A stretch of DNA of 64,000 nt. It comes from Phlyctochytrium arcticum. Lineage: Eukaryota; Chytridiomycota; Chytridiomycetes; Chytridiales; Chytridiaceae. Positions 50,681 to 64,000 of this stretch are shown one piece after another. Each line of letters begins with the position of its first letter. Position 1 is the stretch's first letter. The stretch spans positions 62,001-126,000 of the forward strand of contig JAHLKI010000043.1 of the NCBI GenBank assembly GCA_025602905.1, given 5' to 3'. The notes beneath the pieces were generated by a model, which saw only the letters and a program-made list of their open reading frames with translations, did no database searches and was not told where the DNA came from. Position numbers and translations under genes: made by a program.

Positions 50681-51841
50681 CTACTGCGCTCCGACAGCCT
50701 GCCGGGCGGGGTTGGTGCTCTCCGTGACAGTTGCGTCAGGGAGTAAATCCGCCTTTGACTCGCCCGCCTGCCTTCCACCAGCTAGGGCGGTCAAAGACTG
50801 AAAATGTGCAGTATCTGGGTTATAGGCCAAAAGATCTCCAGCCTTAAAGTCGAAAAACCAGCCATTAACACTAATTTCACCAGTCGACAACTTGTCTTTG
50901 ATCCAAGGGTAGGACACCAAATTTTCCAGGGAGCAGATGATTGATGCTTGTTCGCAAACTCGTGCTTGATGGTCGAAATCCAAATGACCAAAGTTATTGA
51001 GCGTGGTGTCTTTGGCTTGCTGCGCAATGCCCATCCAGGCTTCAATAAATTCGCATCCTGCATAAGAACCGCTGAGAAGGGCGCGGATTCCACCGCAGGA
51101 GGTGTGGCCCATGACAATGATAGACTGGACTTTCAATGCCTTGATGGCAAATTCCATCGCAGCTGACGTTCCGTGTCGGGTACCCATGTCGTTGGGAATA
51201 TAAGGAGGAACGATATTTGCGACATTACGAATCACAAAAAGGTCGCCTGGATCACAGTCGGTAATGATGGCTGGGTCACATCGAGAATCGCAACAACCGA
51301 TCAAGAGGGTTTTGGGAGCTTGACCATGTTGCAAGTTGGAGAATAGAGATGTGTTATCGGCAAAGAAACGCTTGTGGAAGCGTTGGAAGCCAGAGAGAAA
51401 TTTCGACATGTTGGCACGGGCATTTTCATCTATTTTGGAGGTTCATTGAGCTTAAGAAAAAAAATCGTCGCCCACTAATATCTGCAACTCACCTAATTTA
51501 CCAACATCTGATGTAGATGGAATACCAGGCTCTGAAATTTTCTTTCCCCGTTTTCCCAATCCACCCGGCCCCTTTCCATCGTCGGCCTCCTGCGAAATGG
51601 CGTCTTTGTTTTGCTGCATTTTCAGACTAGCGGAAGTGTGTGAATGCGCTGGGACAATCTCCTCATTGGCCCTACGGATGCGATCCGCGACGGTATTGGC
51701 GGTGACGGGAGAGAACTCTTTCGCGACACCAGCATCAGTCGAATGGGTATTGACTGAGGGGCCCGCATTTTTTTGATTGCCTGACATGTTGGGGACTTCG
51801 CTTTCGATGCCGCGAGAGATAGATGCTTGTTTTATTTCCAT
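50681..51841 (-). CDS. Beta-class carbonic anhydrase with long N-terminal extension
   Basis: Two exons joined by an intron near 51429-51490 (GTGAGT...AAATAG). Zinc ligands: Cys-Asp-Ser-Arg in LIGCCDSRCDP and His-x2-Cys in VMGHTSCGGIRAL; RNVANIVPP and EFAIKALKVQSIIV complete the family core, so CO2 hydration activity is expected. From the ATG at 51841 the first 130 residues are Ser/Lys/Gly-rich and disordered, with no clear signal or mitochondrial presequence; typical fungal enzymes lack this. Codons further upstream are open but contain no ATG, so the start may move. The catalytic domain starts around MSKFLSGFQRFHKRFF, which could be an internal start. Confidence 0.9.
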
Positions 51842-52735: not shown

Positions 52736-55700
52736 TCAAATTGTCAAAACGAAAGTAGATACATCTCCACGCGAATTGCCAACAAATATGACAGGTGAGG
52801 GGCCGCCACCAACCGTCATACAAGTAGGGTCATTGGTGGGATACATGGCAACAATCCTCTGCGAAGAATCATCAGAAAATTGCGATTTTGCAGGGTTTTT
52901 ATCGTGACCAGAGTCGAGAGTATCTTTCAAACTCCAGACTCTCATGATATGATCGCTTCCAATTGTCACTATGTAAAGTCCATCGTCCGTGAAGGACCAG
53001 TGTAGTATACGGCCGGACTCATGTCGTAATGTGCAATAGCGTTGTGGTACATCTTGCTGCATAACAACTATAATCCCGATATCTGAGACGGTTGATCGCC
53101 GAATTTGATACGCTGATTGCTCGGTATCGATTCCAGCATACGCAAGGTGTTTCCCGTTGCGATGTGCCAAGCAAGATTGAATAGAAGTAAAATCTCCGTG
53201 CACACCGCCAGACGACCAAAGCGTGTTGTCGAGCCAAAGATCAGATGTTGAGCAATAGGCTATACCAGTAGGTGTCCAGTATATGTCACGTACTTCTTGC
53301 CCGTTTGTTTGGAATGATGTGGACTCATAACCATTTTGCAAGTCCAGAACATACACATGTTGTCCTTTTCCGAGTACAATTTTCGAGCCGTCAGGAGAAA
53401 GCAAATTTTTTGGCACTACAGTGGCATGTCTTTGAAATACTGGAGAAGTGTGGTGGGCTAGAGATCGATCGGGTCTGCGCAGTACTTGCCAAGCCGTGAA
53501 TAACCCTGTGACATCCCATGTACAAAGGAAGAGGTTATGATTTTCCGTTTTGAGACGCACTAAACTTGCTGTTCGGAGTGGTGCTTCCTGGTTCAGCTGC
53601 AATGCAATTTGAAGTGTGTTCATATCGTACGCCGAAACTGAAGCTCCTCCAACGACGACCAAGTAGTTGTCATCTTTGGAATAAGCAATGGCCTGGCCTT
53701 TAAGACCCATAGGTACAACTCTCTTGGGAGAAAATGTCATTCGATTTTCAGTGAGCATCCAGAGAATAAACGTCTCATCACTTGACGTGGATATTACTCC
53801 CACCTCAGCGCTGTTTCCAGGAGAGGAATTTTGCTCGCGGCCGAAAAGTTCTATCTGAAGCACTGCTTTTTTGTGAACAATTTCAGAGCCGGGCGTGTCT
53901 GAACTTTGTTGCCCAAGTGATTTCCAATTCGAATTATTGCAAACCAGAAGACGGTTGCCTAACGTGAGAAAAAATCTTTCTTTTCCACGAGAAGTTCCGA
54001 CACAAATTCCGCTTAAAGAGGCCGCGCCGGACGATATCTTTCGAAGAAGCCGACCATTTTGAATGTTTACCGCATGAATAACACCACTCGAGCTTCCACA
54101 TAACAAGACCGTTTCGTCCGCAGAGAAGCAAAGGGTTTGAACGCTGAACTCCTCCGGTAGCTGAATCAAAGCAATCCGGCTACGGTTATCGATACGCCAT
54201 ATGGTTAGTTGACCGTCGTCGCGAGTGGCAGCAAGCAGATCATGGCTGAGCGAAAAGCATGCTGTTGAATTTTGGGTAATACGAGTTTCGTTGAATCGAC
54301 ACAGTTCCCGTAACTTGGACGCATGGAGTACGATAACGCATTGTTTACGTTCAGAAAGTACGGCCAACCGAGAATGGTCGGATGATACCGCTAATATCAT
54401 ATTGCACGTATTTTCTTCCAAACATCGATCAGGCGCTCGCGCGATCAATTCGGTACGCGAATGAGCAAGTGACTCTATATCCGCAAATAGAATCTGCTCT
54501 AGCTGCCCCAGAGGCGAGCGTTGCCAAAGGTTATGTTTTCCCTCGGAAAAGAAGCACAACCCCCCATTGTAAACACCCTCGGCAATGAAGATCAAAGCCC
54601 CGGAGGATAAGTCAAATAGGCATACATCCTTACTTGCTAGAGCGAACGCTGCGTATTCTGCACCTCCCGGAGAAAGGCAGCACTGAGTCGCTGTCCCGGG
54701 GGGAAAAGGCGAGGCCAAGACTGTACGTAACAGGAAATATGAGTCGACGTCCCATGCTTTAATTGTACCGTCGTCAGAGACGGTCATACAGCATTTTCTC
54801 AGTTCCTTCTGTATGGTAATAGTACTGGTAATGACCTTTGTGGGATGTTGTCCGATAATGATGGATTCTACTTGCGATTCACTAGCCGTTACGCAGTGTA
54901 GAAACAGACGACGCGATTTATCGTTTGCCCTCTCTTTGATTGCATCCTCTCGAACGGAAGGACAAAAAGTCTTTGGAAGGTTATACGCTAGCGTGAAGAT
55001 CATGTCAGGATACGGTCTGAGATATTTTCCGTATGTTTCAACGAAAAAGCTGTAATCACTGAGCTTGGCTACTGCGTCGGCCTGACCTTCCATTTGTGCT
55101 CGCTTCATCACTTCACCCAGAAAAGTGACGATCTCATATCCTGATTCGGCCAAATAAGCGCACCTGAGGAGGCTAAGAGAGCATAAAGCCTGCACGATGA
55201 TTTCCAGCGAAAAGTTTGCTGAAAGCTGATGGTGCACAATGTCCAAGCTTCGACTATAGTCGTAGTCTCTCCAGATTTTATACTTTCCAGCAACCTTATA
55301 GCACACCGACATGAAGTACTCGGCCATTATTCTGTGCTGCTCTTGGGTATCTTTCGCGCTTTTGAAATATCTGTTTCGAATGGCGTTCGAGAAGTCCTCA
55401 TGAAAAGGTATCAAATGTCCAGACTCAGTATAAACCACAAGGTCTTCAAGTGACTGAAATATGAGGTTCCAGCTAACAAAGGGTAGCTTTAACAACCCAA
55501 CGACTTCAACTTCCCGTAATCCAGAGCGAGCAGTCGCCAGAGCTCGAAGAACATTTGCCATATTCTTGCCGTGCTCAATCTCCAGGTCACTCAGTATTTT
55601 GGCAAATATGTCGTTGGTGTTGAATGGAATGTCGTCCAAATTTACCGTCCCATCATTCTTGATCCTTCGGAGCTTGGCTAAGACAGATGCCAAGAACAAT

Positions 55701-58700
55701 GGCTTGGAGAGATCACGTCTGGTAATCAAGGTTCGGATATGCCGGTCGTCCATTGAGGACGGTAAAGTTGATCTGGTCCGGCGAAATATATCTGTTTGCT
55801 CGTTCGGAGATAATCCACCGAGATGCAGGAAATCTGCGTGCGGATGTATCCTTTGTAACGAATCCTTAACTTTGAGATCGTTAGCACTGAACAAAAAGCG
55901 CACAGAATCAAATAGTTGGCTGTTCATCTCGGAACCGAGTGGTAGCCACTTGATATCCAATCTGCGCGTCTGCGCGTCCAACACTCGGTCTATTCCATCA
56001 ACTAGAATTAGAACCTTAAGATCCAATTCTGCTGCGATCTGCAGTAACCGTTTGAAATCACTTTTGATTTCGTCAAACGTCTCTAGGGTATGTGTCCGTT
56101 CGAATATACCGAGCTGACGAGACAAGGTCCTGTGGAACCGCTTCAACATGTGTTGCGCACTAAAGGAGCCATTCCAAGTACGCACGAAATTTGTCAACAT
56201 GATGCATTTTGTCTTCTGGTAGCCTCGAACAATTTGTGAAAACAGCTCGGTCTTTCCGCATCCCGCTTCCCCATACACAAGGATGGTTCCGCGATGCACT
56301 CCTGTGCTTGAAATGACAGGAGCGGTTTGAGTTTTAAATGACGCGAAGGCCAGAATATTACGGATCTTTGTTAACAGTTCAGTTCGCCCAGCGAACGGGA
56401 TCGATGTTTTGTGTGGAAGCCAGGCGCAGTACTCGAGCTCTCGCTGGACAATGGCTTTGTTCAGATCAGCAGTCAGTTGCTTCCCGAAATTCTCCAGCCC
56501 ACCCATACGCACTTTTCTATTCTCAATCCGTGAAAAATACGCTTGATAATTGTGCACATGGTCCCGGTGTGAATTTTCAACAAGATCCAGTTTCAGCAAA
56601 TTCAAGCGAGAGGTTGACTCAAAGTCATTCGAAAGATATTGCGCTCGAAAACTCTTTGGGACAGAACGGGCGAAAGAGGGATCGCGAATGTAGAAGTTTG
56701 ACAGCAATTGGCTGATATGCCTTCTCACGATTGCCAGCTCCTTTTCAAATAAAGAGACATCTTGGCCAGGTTCTGTCTCGATGGTGTTACCAACAAAGCA
56801 GAGTGCTATATCAGTCCGCTTGATCTGCCATTTCAAAGCTGCGAGGTAATCAAGGTTGCTCTGCTGTTGCACGGGATGACCATGTTGGAAATCGACAACT
56901 AGAAGGAGGACCTTCCGACGGAGCCATTGCGCACGAACGTGTGGTAAAATACAGTCGTAGAAGTAGCTACGTTCATTTTCCATGTCTTTACTGGTGCATA
57001 GATAAACAGTAATGCTTCGCATAAGACCTAACGCCTCAGAGGCCCGATCGGGGATAAAACATAGGTCATTGGGCCAATTGAGGTGTTCCATCTGATGTGT
57101 ATCACCCATCGTCAAGGGAGACTTCGAGCCACATAAGCTTACACGATGCAGTAAGGCGTCCACGGGAGCTGTCAGTGACGTATGCACCAACTCAGGTGGA
57201 ACTTCTGATATCGATGGCAGCAGGTTGGAAACTGAGTTCCAATAAGTAATAGGCAGCTGCAATGGCACAGCATTGGAGGATCTGTTCGAAGTGACAGGTC
57301 TGAAGGCGTGTCTGCCCACCCGTAGGTCTGGTTCAGCTACTTCAATGAATAATTTACAACAAGGTAATTGTGAGCGATATCCAGGTCGCACGCACTGTAG
57401 CACCCCGTTAACAGTACAAGCGTTAAGCTCTTGCCAGTCTGTTACTCCATAAGCGGTTGGATACAATGTCCGATCCATGAAGATGGTGCTTATGGCCTCT
57501 TGTAAATTTTCGACGGCAAATAGCGCCTTCAGATTTTCAAAAGCAACCCCGTACTTCTGGCTACATGTTATCATGGCTGCGTACGCCAAGTTGGCAGGGT
57601 TCATCGGGAGCTTCGCACTCAGGATTTTCGGTAAAGATATGCACATGGAATGATGAATGAAATCATGCAAAGCAGCAAGCTCCTCGAAAAACTCTCGAGC
57701 CGAAAGTTGCTGTTGTGCCGAGCTCGATATCCAATCATCAGGGACTCGGTCGTTTACAAGACTCGCTAGACTTCTATTGCAATACTTCACGTCTTCCCGT
57801 AGAATGAGAGTTTTAAGTCCATCTCTTACGGTATGAATTGCTTTGTTGAATGAGTTGGCTTGGCGTAAAAAAATCAGCCGAGCCATTTCCGTATCGTTTC
57901 TGTTCACAGACTCGTACATATCGCGAAGCTTGACGAACTTTGGCGTGCCATTCCATAACGACCCGGCGGTGAGCTGAGGTGATGGGACCTTGGAAGCATG
58001 TGGGCCATAGTCGCTTTCTGATCGTTCGTCATGTATCATCAATTTTCTTAAAACCCCAAGGAAATGTTTGGTCATTTGAGTACGATTATGCTGGTGACTT
58101 TCCATCCGCAGTTTCCAAAGATTCTGCACGCTATTATGCTGCGCGTTTTTGAAACTCCTCTCAAAGTTTTCGTAAGTAACAATGTCAAGTTCGGAAGCAT
58201 TTGTGTATCGTTCAAGTAGAGCAAGGATCAGAAGCCGCCCCGCGTTTATAGGCGTTTCTTCCTCCAAGGTCGTGACTTCCTTCAAATAAATTACCGACAC
58301 GCATATCTCCTCAATCACGTCCGGGGACACGCCCAAATTTACAAGCTGCGTTGTCAAGAATGTGGCCAATTGAAAATCACTGAAGTTTATCTTCAGAGTA
58401 GAGTATTCCAAATTGTTCCAGGTTAATGCCATGCTTTGGGTAGCGGCATGCGTGTATACGAGAGAATATAATGCGCGATTAACTGGTAGCGGAAGCTTGT
58501 GAGGACTTGACACGTAATTGTGCGCCAAGTCCTGAACAAGGATGCTAAAACGGAACATTAGTGCCAATCCTCATTGGAGGTCCGACAAAAGATGAGGCGC
58601 CTCGTACCTTAAGGATTGATCCTTATCAAGAAAAAGTAAATTCACAGCTGCAGCAAGGCCACTGGGCAAGAGATGCTGCATGTATTCGGGACAGACCATC

Positions 58701-61700
58701 CACACCAAACCACCTGCTTGCACTTTGCGCGCATACCACGAAAATTCGGAAATTTTTGAAATCCAGTAATGGTCCAAGTGAACCACTACCCAATCGCCTT
58801 CAACACACGCCCTTTCAATTTTTTCCCGCCAAATATTATCTAGACCCAGTGGCATAAGGAAATGTCCATATGGAAGCCGATCGAAATTACTAACCTTGTT
58901 TGTCTGATTCACCCAAACACACTAACCGGGTTGAATGATGTTCTTGGTCGTCCAAACTGGAACTGATGACATGTAACACGTCCTTTGATGAGTTTGTCAC
59001 CAATACCTTGATTGGCATATGGAATTTCCCGAACAGCGTGTTCCGGTTAAATCCTGGCGGAAGCAATCTGACCCCAGTCGCTTGCATAAGCTCATCTAGT
59101 ACTTGGGAAATACTATCGGGATAAAATAGCCTACATATGAACGCGTAAGAGATCAACTCGGACAAAAGGAATGGAACAGTCTAGTCTCACTTACATAAGT
59201 AGCAAGGCTCGCTCCACCGTCCCCACTCGGCGGTGATATTGGGTTGATACTTCGTGATCTTTTAAAATGTCAACTTGTTGCTTTTGTGCTGTTACTGCAG
59301 CCTCGACGAGTTGTTGAAAAGCAGGTCGTTGGCCTAAACCGCTTTTGGGCAGTCTGCTCATCACTTCCTGCCAACGAATAAGTAACTGCGAATCGAGCAC
59401 AGACAAAAATACACACCTCTGCAAGGAACTCCTCAGGAGTTAGATGGACGATACATTTTTTGAAGAAATCGCTATCAAAATGGCTGACCACCGACAAGTT
59501 GTTTGCCAGCAAGAGAAGAGTAGCCAGCACTACTGGCTCACGATCTGCTGCTTGTATCATGCTGATTGTAGGAACAAGAACTGCAGCCGTCAATGCTGAT
59601 TTAATCACGTCCAAATCTTCCTTTTTCGGGGTCCCACTCTGCAATAAAGCAGCGTGAGGCGACACCGCATCTTCAATGCACGTAAAGAGCATATGATCAG
59701 TGACACCATAGAGTGGTCGAAGCGCTTCCACTCCCTTGACATAAGACTTCAGGGTGGATGAAAAAATTGCAATATGATGGAATGGCTTAAACAAATGCTC
59801 GTTGTGAGACTTGAACGTGCGGTAAATTGCCGCATTTCTTTCGGACTGATAGGAGTTACGCTGATGCACGATGATGTCATGCATCAAGGGATCACTCTCT
59901 GTGATGTTGCTGGATAACATCATGCTGATACAAGATTGGAATGATTCTTCATTCTTTTTAAGTGCGGAACGAACATTGACTCCTAGAACAAAGTTAGGCA
60001 TTGGTCAATGCGACGCGAAGTACAAGAGAATCTTACGCTGAGCCCGTCCCTGAAGGTCAAACGAAGGCCGTACAATATTCATGAGCTTATCCAAGATTAT
60101 ACTGCAAGTTGTTTCGGAAGAATGACAGCAATTGATCACAGAGAAAAACTCTGGAGTCTGTGTGGTGAAACTGGAAAGTTTGGACACCACGATCATTGAC
60201 ATTTCAGCCGACATCCCTGGCCGCCGTTCCTTTTTCCGCTGCTCCTGGATTTTGACTATTTGTGAGCTGATTAAATCATCTTGAAGGTTGGTAATGATTA
60301 TTGGCTTCCATGTTGACTTGAGCACAGCAAGCTGATCAATGAAGTTAGGAGCACGCGCGTCCAACTTCTGCACTTCACCCTTGAGCGGGAAGAGTTTGGT
60401 GCTATCAAGGAAAGGTTCAATTAATCCGTCGGGGTCAAGAATCCAGATATCCTGATTTTGAGATGTGATCAAAGCTATATTCTCTCTCATGACCTTGCTT
60501 TTCTGTAGAAATAATGCGTCGTGAATTGGACTTTCTGTCTTCCTAAATTTGAAACTCCGGCAGTTATCTGGGAATTCCTGCGAAATGATACTCTCAATTT
60601 CTTGAAAGAGTTCGAGTCGTTTTTCTGGTGGAAATGGCCCTAAATAGGTCAAGAAGGCGGATTGCAGAAGAGAATCACCTAGTAAGGTTTTCTCTGCAGC
60701 CGACAAGTCTGCAATTCGTTTGCTGATATCTTCTCCAATTTGACCGAGCGAGTTCGAGAACCTGTTTTGAAATTGCAAGTACTTTCCCGTTCGCTTCCCA
60801 TTGTGAAAGACAAAAATAGCTTGAAATAATTCTGCCAGAAGACTGAAAATTGATGTTCTTGATGAGGCAAGCACAGGTACAGTAACCTGCTGCGCTGGAG
60901 CTTTGAACAGATCCGAAACATTGGCGTTCAGGGAAAGGTGAACAATCCCACCACGGTTATGCGGCAGCTGCTTTCGGAGTCGATCGATTGTGGCATTGAA
61001 TACCCCATTCTTGCGCGCTTTCTTCATGATGAATTCATGGATAAATTTATCAGGCACTGGAGTCTTGTCAGTGGTTTCGCTATGCGCCACCAGCATATAG
61101 TTGCGCAGCGACGAATGCTTATCTCTTGACTGCCTAGTTGGCTGGCCTGCAATGCTGGGAGCTGTACCATCCTCGTGAAGATAATCCGAAAAAGCGTTTT
61201 CCACGGCAACAAAAAGATCATTGGCAAGCTCATAACTGATTAGCATGTCTGATGTAACCACGGTGCCTTTATCGAGACGTCCAAGTTGAGCATACTCAGG
61301 CAGCTTCTTTAAGTAGGTAGTCATTCTCGCATACGCCCTATTTCGTGCTTTAGTTCCAGGCTAGAGCTTGTCTCACTTCAGAAATACATACTTGAAACCC
61401 ATAAGACCCGCCAATGCGTGCGTTACCGACGGCTTTAGCGCGGTTAGCCGACTTTTAGTCATAGCGTCCAAGGTAAAGTAGAATGCTTTCCACGAGAGAT
61501 TGTTGGGGTAGGAAAAGGCAATACCCCAGCCGCGTTTCAGACACATCCATCTCCAGAATTGCATATTTACTAGCGCTTTGCTCCACGGCTGATTCACACG
61601 GAAGGATTGTGCTAATGTCCTGCTGTCGAGTAATGACAGAATTTTCAGTGAAAGAGCTTGTGGCAGCTGCCCGACGATATCAAAATAGATAGAATCAACA

Positions 61701-64000
61701 TGCTTGCGGGTCGCTGAAAGTATATTGGCCAGATTGTACTCTTTCAAATTGTCTTGAATGGTATTGAGCACCTGCGAATCGCTAAATCTTATGTTGGCCA
61801 TCTCCCGCAAGAAAAGTTGCGGGTTACGCAGAATCCATTTGGCTAGTAATGGAGCATCCGCGTTCCAGCCGATCATTGCGCAACTGGTTCTTAGGATAGC
61901 CTCCAGTAGAGGATGAAGATTCTGGGCTGTAATATGACATCTCATGAGGTCCCTATCGGTTTCCTCCAGACGCTTTCGAACACTCTGATAAAGACGGGTA
62001 AGTCTTGATGATTAATAAATGCTCTTGACACGGACCTTCAACGTTTGTAGAATCACTTCAAATGGCCAAAAGGCGGCTTGAACCTCATACTTTTGACACC
62101 ATATATTGTCGAACGTCTTCTTCTCTTGTTTCACCTTCTCTTGGTAATATTGCAACTGCGAGACTACTTGCTGATGTCTAGTCTTATAAGTGCGAACAGC
62201 TGTCGCAATATCGAAGACAGTCATGGCTCCCTTTGGGGCAGTGTACGGCATAATTGCCCTAGACGAGACAGCATTTTTATCTAATACACCGTTAGTGTTG
62301 CCTAGAGAGATTTTCATCGTACACACACCATAATATACGGTCCGATTGTAATCCGAATTGCCCACATTTCGCTTGGCGATCTCTTTCAAATCATCGACGT
62401 CGGAGCTTTGAGCCTGAAATGCAAGATCAGATTTGAACGGAGCTTTTCAAGAGCTGTATAGAGCTCACCCGATCATGTATCAAAGGGACGCTACTCTGCT
62501 CTGGTAGTTGAAGAATGTCTAATAAGATACTGCGAGCGTGAGTAACAAACGGATTACTTGAACCCAAGTCCATCAACGTTGTTATATCGTCCAAGGTGAG
62601 ACTGGAAAGCAGGGTTCGTATTTGCTTCGATTGCTCCTGACCCTCAAAAATATCTGCGGAAAGTAGTCCCTGAATTCCTCCCAGCTCCTGTACTGCTTTC
62701 GCGTAGTTCTCGTGAGCCTTCGCAACATCACCGTTGTCGAAAATAGGGCCATCATCATCGCCATGGAAAGCTTGCTGAATCCACTGGCTTTCTGAAATAT
62801 GGTCGACCTCCCCTGGTTCGTGTCTCTCGAAAATACCTGTTGGGGCGAAAATTTCCTCCAAAAGCGCTATACGCCCAACCAGCTCACGTTTATCATTTTG
62901 AAGGCGGTCATGCTTTTCCCGTAACTCTGCTTCCTCCTGTGTAGCAATTAAAAGCTTATCGCGAGTCTTGATGATTTTTTCCTGAGAATCAGCAGATCCA
63001 ACCATTCGCTTTTGATTTTTCGAAAAACTTTGGGCTTGCTCTTCTCTAACTCTCCGCGTTTCGCGAACGGAGGTGTAAAGGGTAGCTATCCATGAGCATA
63101 ACTCTTTAGCAGCAACGCCCACAACCGCGCAACGATCCGGTCGGAAGGCGCTAGCTTCGACGATTAATTTCAGTTTCATAAGGGTAACATCTGACACGGT
63201 GTCTGGCCCGAATCCGAGAAGTTTGTGCAGGAATGAGTGGCTGGCTAAAATTTTCCGAGCTTCTGCCCACGACGGCGGGCGGTCAAAAAGAATGCACAGA
63301 GCGTTTGATAGCATGACAACTGATGCTGGTAGTTCACCCTCCGTCCGTAGCTCCTGGAACGCGTCCTTGCGCAGCGCTTGTAAGCGTTTCTGGCTGTTTT
63401 CCAGCATCCGTCGAGCGGCATCCAAAGCACCATCAGCTAGGGTCTGTTGTCGTTCCCGCCATTCCCGACCTACAAGATCCTCATCCAGTTTCAGCTTATA
63501 CCGTAGCTCTTTAACAGTGGCTTCGCTGGTGCGTAGGCGACTCCTGACTTCTTCAAGTTCTAAGGCAGTTCGACGCAATTCTTCAGGAAGATGCTTTAGA
63601 CTTTTGCGCGTAGCATCAATTGTCGACGCAATTTTAGTTTTTCCATCAAGAACGCGTTCTAGACAGTTGGAATATCTTTTCAATTGATCTTGGATGGATC
63701 GGCGCTTTTGCTGATACGAACTTGAAAATCTCTGAAGATGGTCCTCAAAACTTCGTAAAGAAAAAAGACGAGCAGAAGTAGACCAGTTGCTCGATTTTTC
63801 GATTACAGCTGAATAGAGACGGGTACTCAGCAACGAAACTTTCGAGACTTCCAGGCCGTCACTCTTAGTGGCTTCATTTACCCCGGTTTGGGTGAGATAA
63901 TGGTTAGCAAAGTCCGCAAGTCCTTCAGCTGGCATATCACGGTACATTGTCAGATCTGGAGCCGAAACGAGTTTCGGGTATTGACCTATGGTTCTCAGAG
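52736..64000 (-). CDS. Giant fusion protein: dynein heavy-chain motor (AAA4 end to C-term) + F-box insert + TEP1-like DUF4062/NACHT/WD40; N-terminus outside window
   Basis: Nine exons (64000-62469, 62413-62036, 61984-61392, 61337-60037, 59982-59417, 59367-59195, 59130-58895, 58839-58608, 58544-52736) join without a phase error into 3,605 codons plus stop; the 5' end is cut by the window. Dynein features in order: end of AAA4 linker (YPKLVSAPDLTMYRDMPAEG), helical stalk, MTBD-like ALCILFDRPPSWAEARKIL, return coil, AAA5 (EKTLLGDSLLQSAFLTYLGP), AAA6 (FYPDSISQVLDELMQATGV; ERACVEGDWVVVHLDHYW; PEYMQHLLPSGLAAAV) and C-terminal domain (YSLVYTHAATQSMALTWNN). Between stalk and AAA5 lie about 650 extra residues with an F-box. 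After the C-terminal domain comes a TEP1/NWD1-like segment (SITVYLCTSKDMENERSYFY; VRMGGLENFGKQL), a NACHT NTPase (LVYGEAGCGKTELF; LILVDGIDRVLD) and WD40 repeats. Dynein orthology is divergent; the domain order is an inference from motif reading. Confidence 0.82.
52790..54800 (-). other. WD40 propeller region
   Basis: Repeated blade endings are seen: DGTIKAWDVD, DGQLTIWRID, DETFILWML, VTGLFTAWQVL and SDHIMRVWSL, with intervening LxxSxDxxxLxxGxxxG strands. Spacing suggests roughly one to two degenerate propellers. Confidence 0.75.
55900..57030 (-). other. TEP1/NWD1-like N-terminal segment and NACHT NTPase core
   Basis: Around 57020 the motif RSITVYLCTSKDMENERSYF resembles the DUF4062 start (V-x-V-F-I-S-S-T-x-x-D-M-x-x-E-R). 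RDPSFARSVPKSFRAQYLSN and VRMGGLENFGKQLTADL match TEP1 spacing. The P-loop GEAGCGKT is at about 56247-56270 and the Walker B LVDGIDRVLD at about 55975-56010. Confidence 0.78.
58190..58544 (-). other. Dynein C-terminal domain abutting the STAND half
   Basis: The first 120 residues of the last exon resemble the start of the dynein C-terminal domain: a xLYSLVYTHAATQ helix in place of LLFALCFFHAVxxER, then WNNLEYSTLKINFSDFQLAT in place of GWNxxYxFNxSDLxIS, then a segment ending RLLILALLERYTNAS in place of RRxLxxxLxxFYNPD. It is separated from the TEP1-like part by about 370 residues without a recognised domain. Confidence 0.72.
61525..61669 (-). other. F-box motif inside the dynein-like protein
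   Basis: The stretch LPQALSLKILSLLDSRTLAQ followed by SFRVNQPWSKALVNMQFWRW and MCLKRGWGI has the F-box spacing LPxxLxxxILSxLDxxxLxxxxRVxxxW...LWxxxCxRRWG, and continues with SWKAFYFTLDAM as in many F-box proteins. F-boxes normally bind SKP1 of SCF ubiquitin ligases. Confidence 0.75.
63078..63329 (-). other. Dynein microtubule-binding-domain-like segment within the stalk
   Basis: Between two coiled-coil stretches the protein reads PASVVMLSNALCILFDRPPS, then ARKILASHSFLHKLLGF, SDVTLMKLKLIVEASAFRPD and AAKELCSWIATLYTSVRE. This follows the helix order of dynein MTBDs (H1 A-x-CILL, then FLxxLxxFxxDxV, then xFxPExV, then LCxWVxAxxxY). Residues contacting tubulin cannot be judged. Confidence 0.7.

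What the first reader, a model, noticed from the sequence alone, without database searches (positions are those of the whole stretch)
52736..64000. A dynein motor fused to a NACHT-WD40 (STAND) module in one gene
Seen: one minus-strand reading path of 3,605 codons crosses eight short introns with no stop and no phase conflict. Its N-terminal part carries dynein stalk, AAA5, AAA6 and C-terminal-domain motifs; its C-terminal part carries a TEP1/NWD1-like segment, a NACHT P-loop and WD40 repeats. The exon holding the dynein C-terminal domain is the same uninterrupted exon that encodes the NACHT and WD40 parts, so that junction does not rest on a splice guess. Known: dynein heavy chains are microtubule motors; NACHT-WD40 STAND proteins are signal-dependent scaffolds. 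Inference: a motor whose cargo end (normally N-terminal tail) is complemented by a nucleotide-switched C-terminal platform. I know of no described protein with this architecture.
Basis: partly seen in the sequence, partly recalled or inferred. Interest (0 to 1): 0.95.

Follow-up and report, generated by a model that had tools for sequence, protein, structure and literature searches.

The report
Dynein fused to an immune-type receptor
Some chytrid fungi carry one giant gene that joins a degenerate copy of dynein, the motor that walks on microtubules, to a complete receptor module of the kind used in immunity and cell death, which suggests a fixed sensor rather than a working motor.

Summary
The fusion is real. 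The window lies in Phlyctochytrium arcticum; my 14-exon model, window 52736 to 72711 (8.7 kb past the right end), equals NCBI hypothetical protein DFS34DRAFT_698061, 6419 aa. One exon, 52736-58544, runs from the dynein C-terminal domain through NACHT to WD40. Full-length relatives occur in Spizellomyces punctatus, S. 'palustris' and Gorgonomyces haynaldii, a C-terminal part in Polyrhizophydium stewartii.

(1) The 'TEP1-like' segment is DUF4062: its profile matches only human TEP1's TIR-like NADase domain in the PDB (E 9e-26), catalytic Glu kept in 5 of 5. (2) The dynein looks dead as a motor: AAA1 lacks Walker B and AAA4 its P-loop in 4 of 4 full-length members. (3) A family-specific insert of about 630 aa with an F-box-like motif sits at the stalk base.

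Best reading: a dynein-derived, microtubule-anchored STAND receptor, not a motor with a new cargo end. Architecture near certain; mechanism inferred, about 0.5. Literature searches found no description, one unexamined ctenophore figure legend aside.

The parts
52736..63985 (-). Window part of the gene (exons 5-14 of 14); protein residues 2835-6419 of P0001; the remainder lies at C43:126044-134711, right of the window
52736..58544 (-). Last exon: end of AAA6 / dynein C-terminal domain, DUF4062, NACHT, helical region, WD40, stop, all without an intron
62889..63848 (-). Dynein stalk: coiled coil 1, microtubule-binding domain, start of coiled coil 2
   Evidence: Pfam MT 3e-8; profile match 99.9% to ordinary dyneins; boundaries approximate
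60791..62888 (-). Family-specific insert of about 630 aa at the base of stalk coiled coil 2 (span includes introns)
   Evidence: no match to ordinary dyneins (probability 0.1% and 8.7% in two settings), whereas the flanking parts end and start close together on the template; present in 4 of 4 full-length members
61538..61669 (-). F-box-like motif inside the insert
   Evidence: Pfam F-box-like 3.6e-5, 23.9 bits against a cut-off of 24.3; PF12937 precomputed for both Spizellomyces relatives, not for P0001 or P0003
59927..60790 (-). AAA5 region (span includes an intron)
   Evidence: hhalign against ordinary dyneins; no Pfam AAA_9 match
58619..59926 (-). AAA6 region (span includes introns)
   Evidence: hhalign; no Pfam Dynein_heavy match
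57596..58618 (-). Dynein C-terminal domain region
   Evidence: Pfam Dynein_C 1.4e-4, 6.8e-19 in the P. stewartii relative; hhalign 99.9%
56423..57019 (-). DUF4062, TIR-like domain of the TEP1 type
   Evidence: family profile against human TEP1 TIR domain 11gz_A, E 9e-26, nearly the whole domain
56738..56740 (-). Codon of the conserved Glu (P0001 residue 5086) that aligns with TEP1 catalytic E1008
55775..56287 (-). NACHT NTPase domain
   Evidence: Pfam NACHT 3.5e-7, 30.7 bits against 26.7; the only match found for this family in the genome, 31 candidates scored
56246..56272 (-). NACHT Walker A, GEAGCGKTE
55982..56011 (-). NACHT Walker B, LILVDGIDRV
54716..55555 (-). Helical / winged-helix region after NACHT
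   Evidence: HTH_NWD1 3.3e-4 in the P. stewartii relative, 21 bits, under its cut-off of 27; 53% identity to S. punctatus
52739..54715 (-). WD40 repeats, about 660 aa
   Evidence: many beta-propeller families in Pfam, best 5.5e-16 but under its own cut-off; ANAPC4_WD40 5.5e-9 is over its cut-off

Best explanation
The gene encodes a chytrid-conserved protein of about 6,400 aa in which a complete but catalytically degenerate dynein heavy chain is followed, in the same chain, by a TEP1/NWD1-type STAND receptor (TIR-like DUF4062, NACHT switch, helical region, WD40 sensor). Shown: the fusion, its order, its presence in five species (four full-length), loss of the AAA1 Walker B and the AAA4 P-loop, retention of AAA3 Walker A and B, of the stalk with its microtubule-binding domain, of the NACHT motifs and of the TIR catalytic Glu, and a stalk-base insert with an F-box-like motif. 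Inferred: the dynein part does not walk. With AAA1 able to bind but not split ATP, and no nucleotide at AAA4, the stalk would sit in a fixed registry, so the ring, stalk and tail act as an anchor on microtubules, most likely in the zoospore flagellum. The WD40 part senses a signal, NACHT switches and clusters neighbouring molecules, and the TIR-like domains, brought together, act by splitting NAD+ or as a protein-binding platform; the F-box may link the complex to ubiquitin ligase.
For: Fusion and conservation. Motor loss: where the sampled dyneins have forms of WACFDEFNRI at AAA1, the 4 full-length members have FLIMRNIERL, FLVFRQLDRL, FLVFRQLERL and FLVLTHYDAL (4 of 4; the two Spizellomyces rows are near-identical sisters, so three independent lineages), with GxxxxGKT kept in 4 of 4; AAA3 GxxxxGKT and F-I/V-DDL kept in 4 of 4; AAA4 P-loop absent in 4 of 4. 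Yeast precedent: the AAA4 ATP-binding mutant is immotile and AAA1 E/Q + AAA4 K/A gives one stalk registry in both directions (PMC7683685, passages). TIR-like domain; E1008 dependence and activity rising with concentration in human TEP1 (PMC13174449, abstract, passages and section 11). The low-confidence fold of this part has the TIR-NLR RPP1 as first Foldseek match.
Against: No transcript, protein, localisation or activity data were available. Microtubule binding is inferred from sequence only, and a flagellar site only from the hosts (zoosporic chytrids). Human NWD1, NWD2 and NPHP3 also carry DUF4062-NACHT but showed no NADase activity when purified, so the domain alone is not enough. Two Arg that support TEP1 activity are not kept: R908 aligns with K, P, P, E, S, and R976 with T in P. 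arcticum and K in the other four. The P. arcticum F-box match is just under its cut-off and its fold model was unusable (pLDDT 51). AAA3 could still hydrolyse ATP, so some mechanical role is not excluded.
Confidence: 0.5

Rival explanations
1. A true motor: the dynein walks and the C-terminal STAND module is a nucleotide-switched cargo or regulatory platform.
For: Linker, six-AAA order, stalk, microtubule-binding domain, AAA1 Walker A, AAA2 arginine-finger region and AAA3 Walker A and B are kept.
Against: AAA1 Walker B is missing in 4 of 4 full-length members and the AAA4 P-loop in 4 of 4; AAA5/AAA6 have diverged beyond Pfam detection.
Confidence: 0.12
2. A structural axonemal subunit: the dynein relic and its added domains are only docking surfaces, and NACHT and TIR are no longer used as switch or enzyme.
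For: AAA1 lacks Walker B; the TIR Arg pair is lost; purified NWD1, NWD2 and NPHP3 were inactive; the insert is among the best-kept parts.
Against: The NACHT Walker A and B and the TIR Glu are kept in 5 of 5 members, although P. arcticum is only 35, 26 and 29% identical over NACHT to S. punctatus, G. haynaldii and P. stewartii.
Confidence: 0.25
3. A decaying relic of a dynein duplicate, as suggested in print for human DNHD1.
For: Long branch, apart from all sampled dyneins; a ghost-gene reading exists for DNHD1 (PMC8754002, passage).
Against: An intact frame of about 6,200-6,500 codons in four species with the same motif losses and the same motif retentions.
Confidence: 0.05
4. Gene-model or assembly chimera.
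For: None found.
Against: Uninterrupted exon over the junction; same order in other genomes.
Confidence: 0.01

Closest known systems
Axonemal dynein heavy chains (DNAH family)
   Same: DHC_N2 linker, AAA1-4 by Pfam, AAA5-6 and C-terminal domain by profile comparison, stalk and microtubule-binding domain; PF08385 (DHC_N1, name recalled) is not listed for P0001 nor for the DNAH1, DNAH3 and DNAH6 rows
   Different: About 18-23% identity in the listed ordinary dyneins; AAA1 Walker B and AAA4 P-loop lost; insert of about 630 aa in the stalk; STAND receptor at the C-terminus; own clade in the tree
TEP1 / NWD1 / NWD2 / NPHP3 (DUF4062-NACHT proteins)
   Same: DUF4062, NACHT, helical region and WD40 in the same order (PMC13174449)
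   Different: No TROVE or vWA match in the exon scans or in the database list for P0001 (accessions recalled); preceded by a whole dynein heavy chain
TIR-NLR receptors such as plant RPP1; Apaf-1 and Dark
   Same: TIR-like domain next to a STAND NTPase; Foldseek first match RPP1, E 1.4e-10
   Different: Low-confidence model, query TM-scores about 0.2; WD40 instead of LRR (RPP1, recalled); the NTPase part matches ORC/Cdc6 as well as NLRs
DNHD1, orphan dynein-related protein
   Same: Described as orphan, possibly non-functional dynein relative (PMC8754002, passage)
   Different: No sequence comparison could be made here
NACHT proteins of the ctenophore Mnemiopsis leidyi
   Same: A figure legend lists DHC_N (dynein heavy chain), WD40 and DUF4062 among domains found with NACHT (PMC11797021, passages)
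   Different: The figure is not held and the passages seen do not discuss it; whether any one protein has this order is unknown

Membership tests
Dynein heavy chain | Linker (DHC_N2) and AAA1-AAA4 modules | tested here: met
   Pfam 2.1e-39, 5.6e-23, 1.3e-20, 4.2e-10
Dynein heavy chain | AAA5, AAA6 and C-terminal domain | tested here: met
   hhalign 99.9% for AAA5+6 and for the C-terminal part, in order; Pfam AAA_9 and Dynein_heavy do not match
Dynein heavy chain | Stalk with microtubule-binding domain | tested here: met
   Pfam MT 3e-8, hhalign 99.9%
Active dynein motor | AAA1 Walker A and Walker B both intact | tested here: not met
   Walker A 4 of 4, Walker B 0 of 4 full-length members; P. 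stewartii row lacks this part
Active dynein motor | ATP-driven movement on microtubules | not testable with these tools
   needs purified protein
STAND NTPase (NACHT-WD40) | NACHT domain with Walker A and B, C-terminal WD40 repeats | tested here: met
STAND NTPase (NACHT-WD40) | Nucleotide-dependent switch and oligomerisation | not testable with these tools
   needs purified protein
TEP1/NWD1-type DUF4062 (TIR-like) domain | Sequence match over the domain, next to NACHT | tested here: met
   11gz_A E 9e-26, profile 9-210 on chain 4-214; single members match Pfam DUF4062 only weakly (5 of 5 at E up to 10, best 0.0048) and the Nephrocystin-3 domain (4 of 5, best 1.9e-5)
TIR-like NADase | Catalytic Glu (TEP1 E1008) | tested here: met
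   5 of 5; chain-to-protein offset of 893 inferred by hand count and consistent with R908, R954 and R976 named in the paper
TIR-like NADase | Supporting Arg R908 and R976 | tested here: not met
   R908 0 of 5; R976 is K in 4 and T in 1 of 5
TIR-like NADase | NAD+ hydrolysis | not testable with these tools
   needs purified protein
TEP1 proper (vault protein) | TROVE and vWA domains (named in PMC13174449) | tested here: not met
   no such Pfam match in the exon scans (last exon 25 of 38 families shown, exon 11 not scanned) or in the database list for P0001
F-box protein | F-box over the Pfam cut-off | tested here: inconclusive
   23.9 of 24.3 bits in P. arcticum; listed for 2 of 4 full-length members, both Spizellomyces
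DNHD1 | Grouping with DNHD1 in a tree | not tested

The most novel reading that the evidence does not exclude
A new class of microtubule- or flagellum-anchored STAND receptor: a dead dynein holds a TIR-like NADase / NACHT / WD40 sensor, with an F-box, on the axoneme of swimming chytrid spores, so that a signal there is turned into NAD+ loss or targeted protein destruction, for example to end swimming or kill an infected or damaged zoospore.
Probability: 0.25. Interest if true: 0.95.

Novelty: new variant of a known kind. Interest (0 to 1): 0.86.

Why it matters
Dyneins and STAND receptors are two large, well-studied protein machines, and I found no printed description of the two in one chain (a ctenophore figure legend that lists DHC_N beside NACHT could not be examined). 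A dynein that has kept its parts but lost its main hydrolytic site, and gained a TIR-like/NACHT/WD40 receptor and an F-box-like insert, would show a motor turned into an anchored sensor. It also bears on whether early-branching fungi have NLR-like proteins: a 2014 survey reported none in chytrids (PMC4986451, passages). S. punctatus holds an equivalent gene, so the idea can be tested.

Tried and rejected
Chimera or artefact: rejected. Motor reading: lowered by the AAA1 and AAA4 motifs. Vault link: Pfam Vault gave no match in the genome, but the control genomes gave none either, so this shows nothing. A second TEP1-type module in the genome: none found with the DUF4062-NACHT stretch at E up to 0.1. 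NCBIfam: only matches of P-loop or AAA ATPase parts, all under their cut-offs; PADLOC: one weak match (mad8, 0.0033) at the NACHT P-loop. Structure models: F-box exon unusable (mean pLDDT 51.3); the Dynein_C-to-NACHT model has mean pLDDT 50.2, with 273 of 1076 residues at 70 or more, nearly all in the DUF4062 and NACHT parts, which also have dips to about 40, so the fold matches are support, not proof; VIA-align rows mainly cover 711-1072 and rank ORC/Cdc6 with NLRs. TEP1 was not among the 50 rows shown in either fold list. Phyletic range: the protein search misses true members (one search missed both Spizellomyces rows; one search missed Gorgonomyces), so absence elsewhere cannot be claimed. 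Tree: 30 of 122 proteins, quick method, midpoint root, the program warned of long branches meeting and of odd letter make-up in three of the four family rows, and no row was labelled DNHD1, DNAH2, 7, 12 or 14. hhalign used 45 of 107 ordinary dyneins. Papers: no hit for the four locus tags, none for a dead-AAA1 dynein term set.

Full report
Where the window lies. It is C43:62001-126000 of a 31.5 Mb genome in 91 contigs. The protein search returned the gene itself as P0001, hypothetical protein DFS34DRAFT_698061 of Phlyctochytrium arcticum, on a contig of the same length, 167859 bases. P. arcticum is a chytrid fungus.

Gene model. Stop-to-stop frames and splice-site scoring gave a 13-exon model that differs from P0001 only by two residues at the start and one extra 48-nt in-frame intron. 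With that intron, which the aligned Spizellomyces and Gorgonomyces proteins support because they lack the 16 residues, the 14-exon model reproduces P0001 exactly. Introns are 48-64 nt. The gene runs from window coordinate 72711 (start codon, outside the window) down to 52736.

Check of the junction. The last exon, 52736-58544, holds 1935 whole codons in one open frame, with Dynein_C, NACHT and WD40-type matches. NACHT is the only match found for its family in the genome, 31 candidates scored. The dynein parts before it are found by Pfam for linker, AAA1-4 and stalk and by profile-profile alignment for stalk, AAA5, AAA6 and the C-terminal domain, each in the right order on a profile of 45 of 107 ordinary dyneins (E-values there are for one template).

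Conservation. Full-length relatives: S. punctatus SPPG_06767 and S. 'palustris' (6481 aa each, 45% identity over linker-AAA3) and Gorgonomyces haynaldii EDD86DRAFT_269734 (6161 aa). Polyrhizophydium stewartii HK105_007140 (2147 aa) covers AAA6 to WD40. The two Spizellomyces rows are 82-95% identical to each other by part, so the full-length set stands for three independent lineages. NCBI files Spizellomyces under Spizellomycetales, Gorgonomyces and Polyrhizophydium under Rhizophydiales and P. arcticum under Chytridiales. Every named part is aligned in the members that reach it. The best-kept part between P. arcticum and G. haynaldii is the first 250 residues of the stalk insert (36%), above AAA3 (29%), linker and AAA1 (28% each) and WD40 (27%); the dynein C-terminal domain is the weakest kept (13%).

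The dynein is altered as a machine. Against DNAH1, 3, 5, 6 and DYNC1H1 rows, AAA1 keeps its P-loop but the Walker B acidic pair is gone in 4 of 4 full-length members. AAA2 keeps Walker A and the Arg region; AAA3 keeps Walker A and the DD of Walker B; AAA4 has no P-loop. By analogy with yeast dynein mutants (PMC7683685, passages) this predicts no stepping and a fixed stalk registry; the analogy is an inference across distant dyneins. In a 30-row tree the family is split from the other 26 rows with SH-aLRT 100; the root is at the midpoint, for drawing only, and the program warned of long branches. The genome has 16 matches to AAA_6, some of them pieces of one gene; this gene's is the weakest that spans the whole profile, so ordinary dyneins are present besides it.

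The insert. Between stalk and AAA5 lie about 630 residues with no counterpart in ordinary dyneins; the parts on either side end and start 9 template residues apart in one hhalign setting and 21 profile columns apart in the other. It contains an F-box-like motif, just under cut-off in P. arcticum and listed by the database for both Spizellomyces proteins.

The receptor module. The segment before NACHT is DUF4062. A profile of five members finds only human TEP1's TIR-like domain among all PDB sequences at E up to 1, E 9e-26. Osinski et al. (PMC13174449; abstract, passages and section 11 seen) showed that this TEP1 domain splits NAD+ and that activity needs E1008 and grows with concentration, whereas purified NWD1, NWD2 and NPHP3 were inactive. 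The equivalent Glu is invariant in 5 of 5 members; R908 and R976 are not kept. Single members match Pfam DUF4062 only weakly (best 0.0048) and the Nephrocystin-3 domain somewhat better (best 1.9e-5, 4 of 5 members). NACHT Walker A and the D-G-I/V-D of Walker B are kept in 5 of 5. After NACHT, P. stewartii matches HTH_NWD1 at 3.3e-4, under its cut-off. A low-confidence structure model (mean pLDDT 50) has the TIR-NLR RPP1 as its first Foldseek match, with bacterial Avs3/Avs4, ORC and Dark among the next rows; VIA-align ranks ORC/Cdc6, NLRs and Apaf-1 together for the NTPase part.

Function. The most economical reading is an anchored receptor: dynein shape for placing the molecule on microtubules, STAND module for sensing and acting. 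That it sits in the flagellum is a guess from the life style of the hosts. Rivals are a real motor, a purely structural subunit, and a relic.

Literature. Ten searches with terms on dynein together with NACHT, WD40, DNHD1, TEP1, NWD1, DUF4062, F-box, chytrid and S. punctatus, the four locus tags, and AAA1/Walker B gave no title or abstract start that describes such a protein. Only the listed rows were looked at: all of 3, 6, 0, 1, 0 and 2 papers, but 20 of 155, 15 of 59, 10 of 22 and 8 of 13. The fungal flagellum atlas of 2026 does not hold the word NACHT in its main text (PMC13358043, term search). The fungal NLR survey of 2014 reports no hits in chytrids (PMC4986451, passages). One possible precedent is a ctenophore figure legend that lists DHC_N among partner domains of NACHT (PMC11797021, passages). 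A main dynein phylogeny (Kollmar 2016, doi recalled) is not held, so a mention there cannot be excluded.

Noticed in passing
50684-51442 (-): Carbonic anhydrase (Pro_CA 1.3e-45) just downstream of the giant gene.
   Followed up: partly
L004:3062-4498 (+), C43:135062-136498: Zinc carboxypeptidase M14 (1.6e-81), divergently oriented next to the start of the giant gene.
   Followed up: partly
C16:573710-574702 and 580323-580661: Another diverged dynein in the same genome: AAA_6 156.7 bits over the whole profile and Dynein_heavy 62 bits, well below the other whole-profile matches apart from this gene.
   Followed up: no
P0012, P0014, P0026, P0031 (oomycetes): Dynein heavy chains whose database domain lists include PF01344, PF00630 and PF01833 (kelch, FHA and IPT/TIG, names recalled), another case of added domains.
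   Followed up: no
C13:305163-306967 (-): Two NPHP3_N-like matches, one over the cut-off with an in-frame stop, possibly a broken or intron-split P-loop gene.
   Followed up: no
whole genome: The NACHT of this gene is the only match found for that Pfam family in the genome (31 candidates scored).
   Followed up: yes
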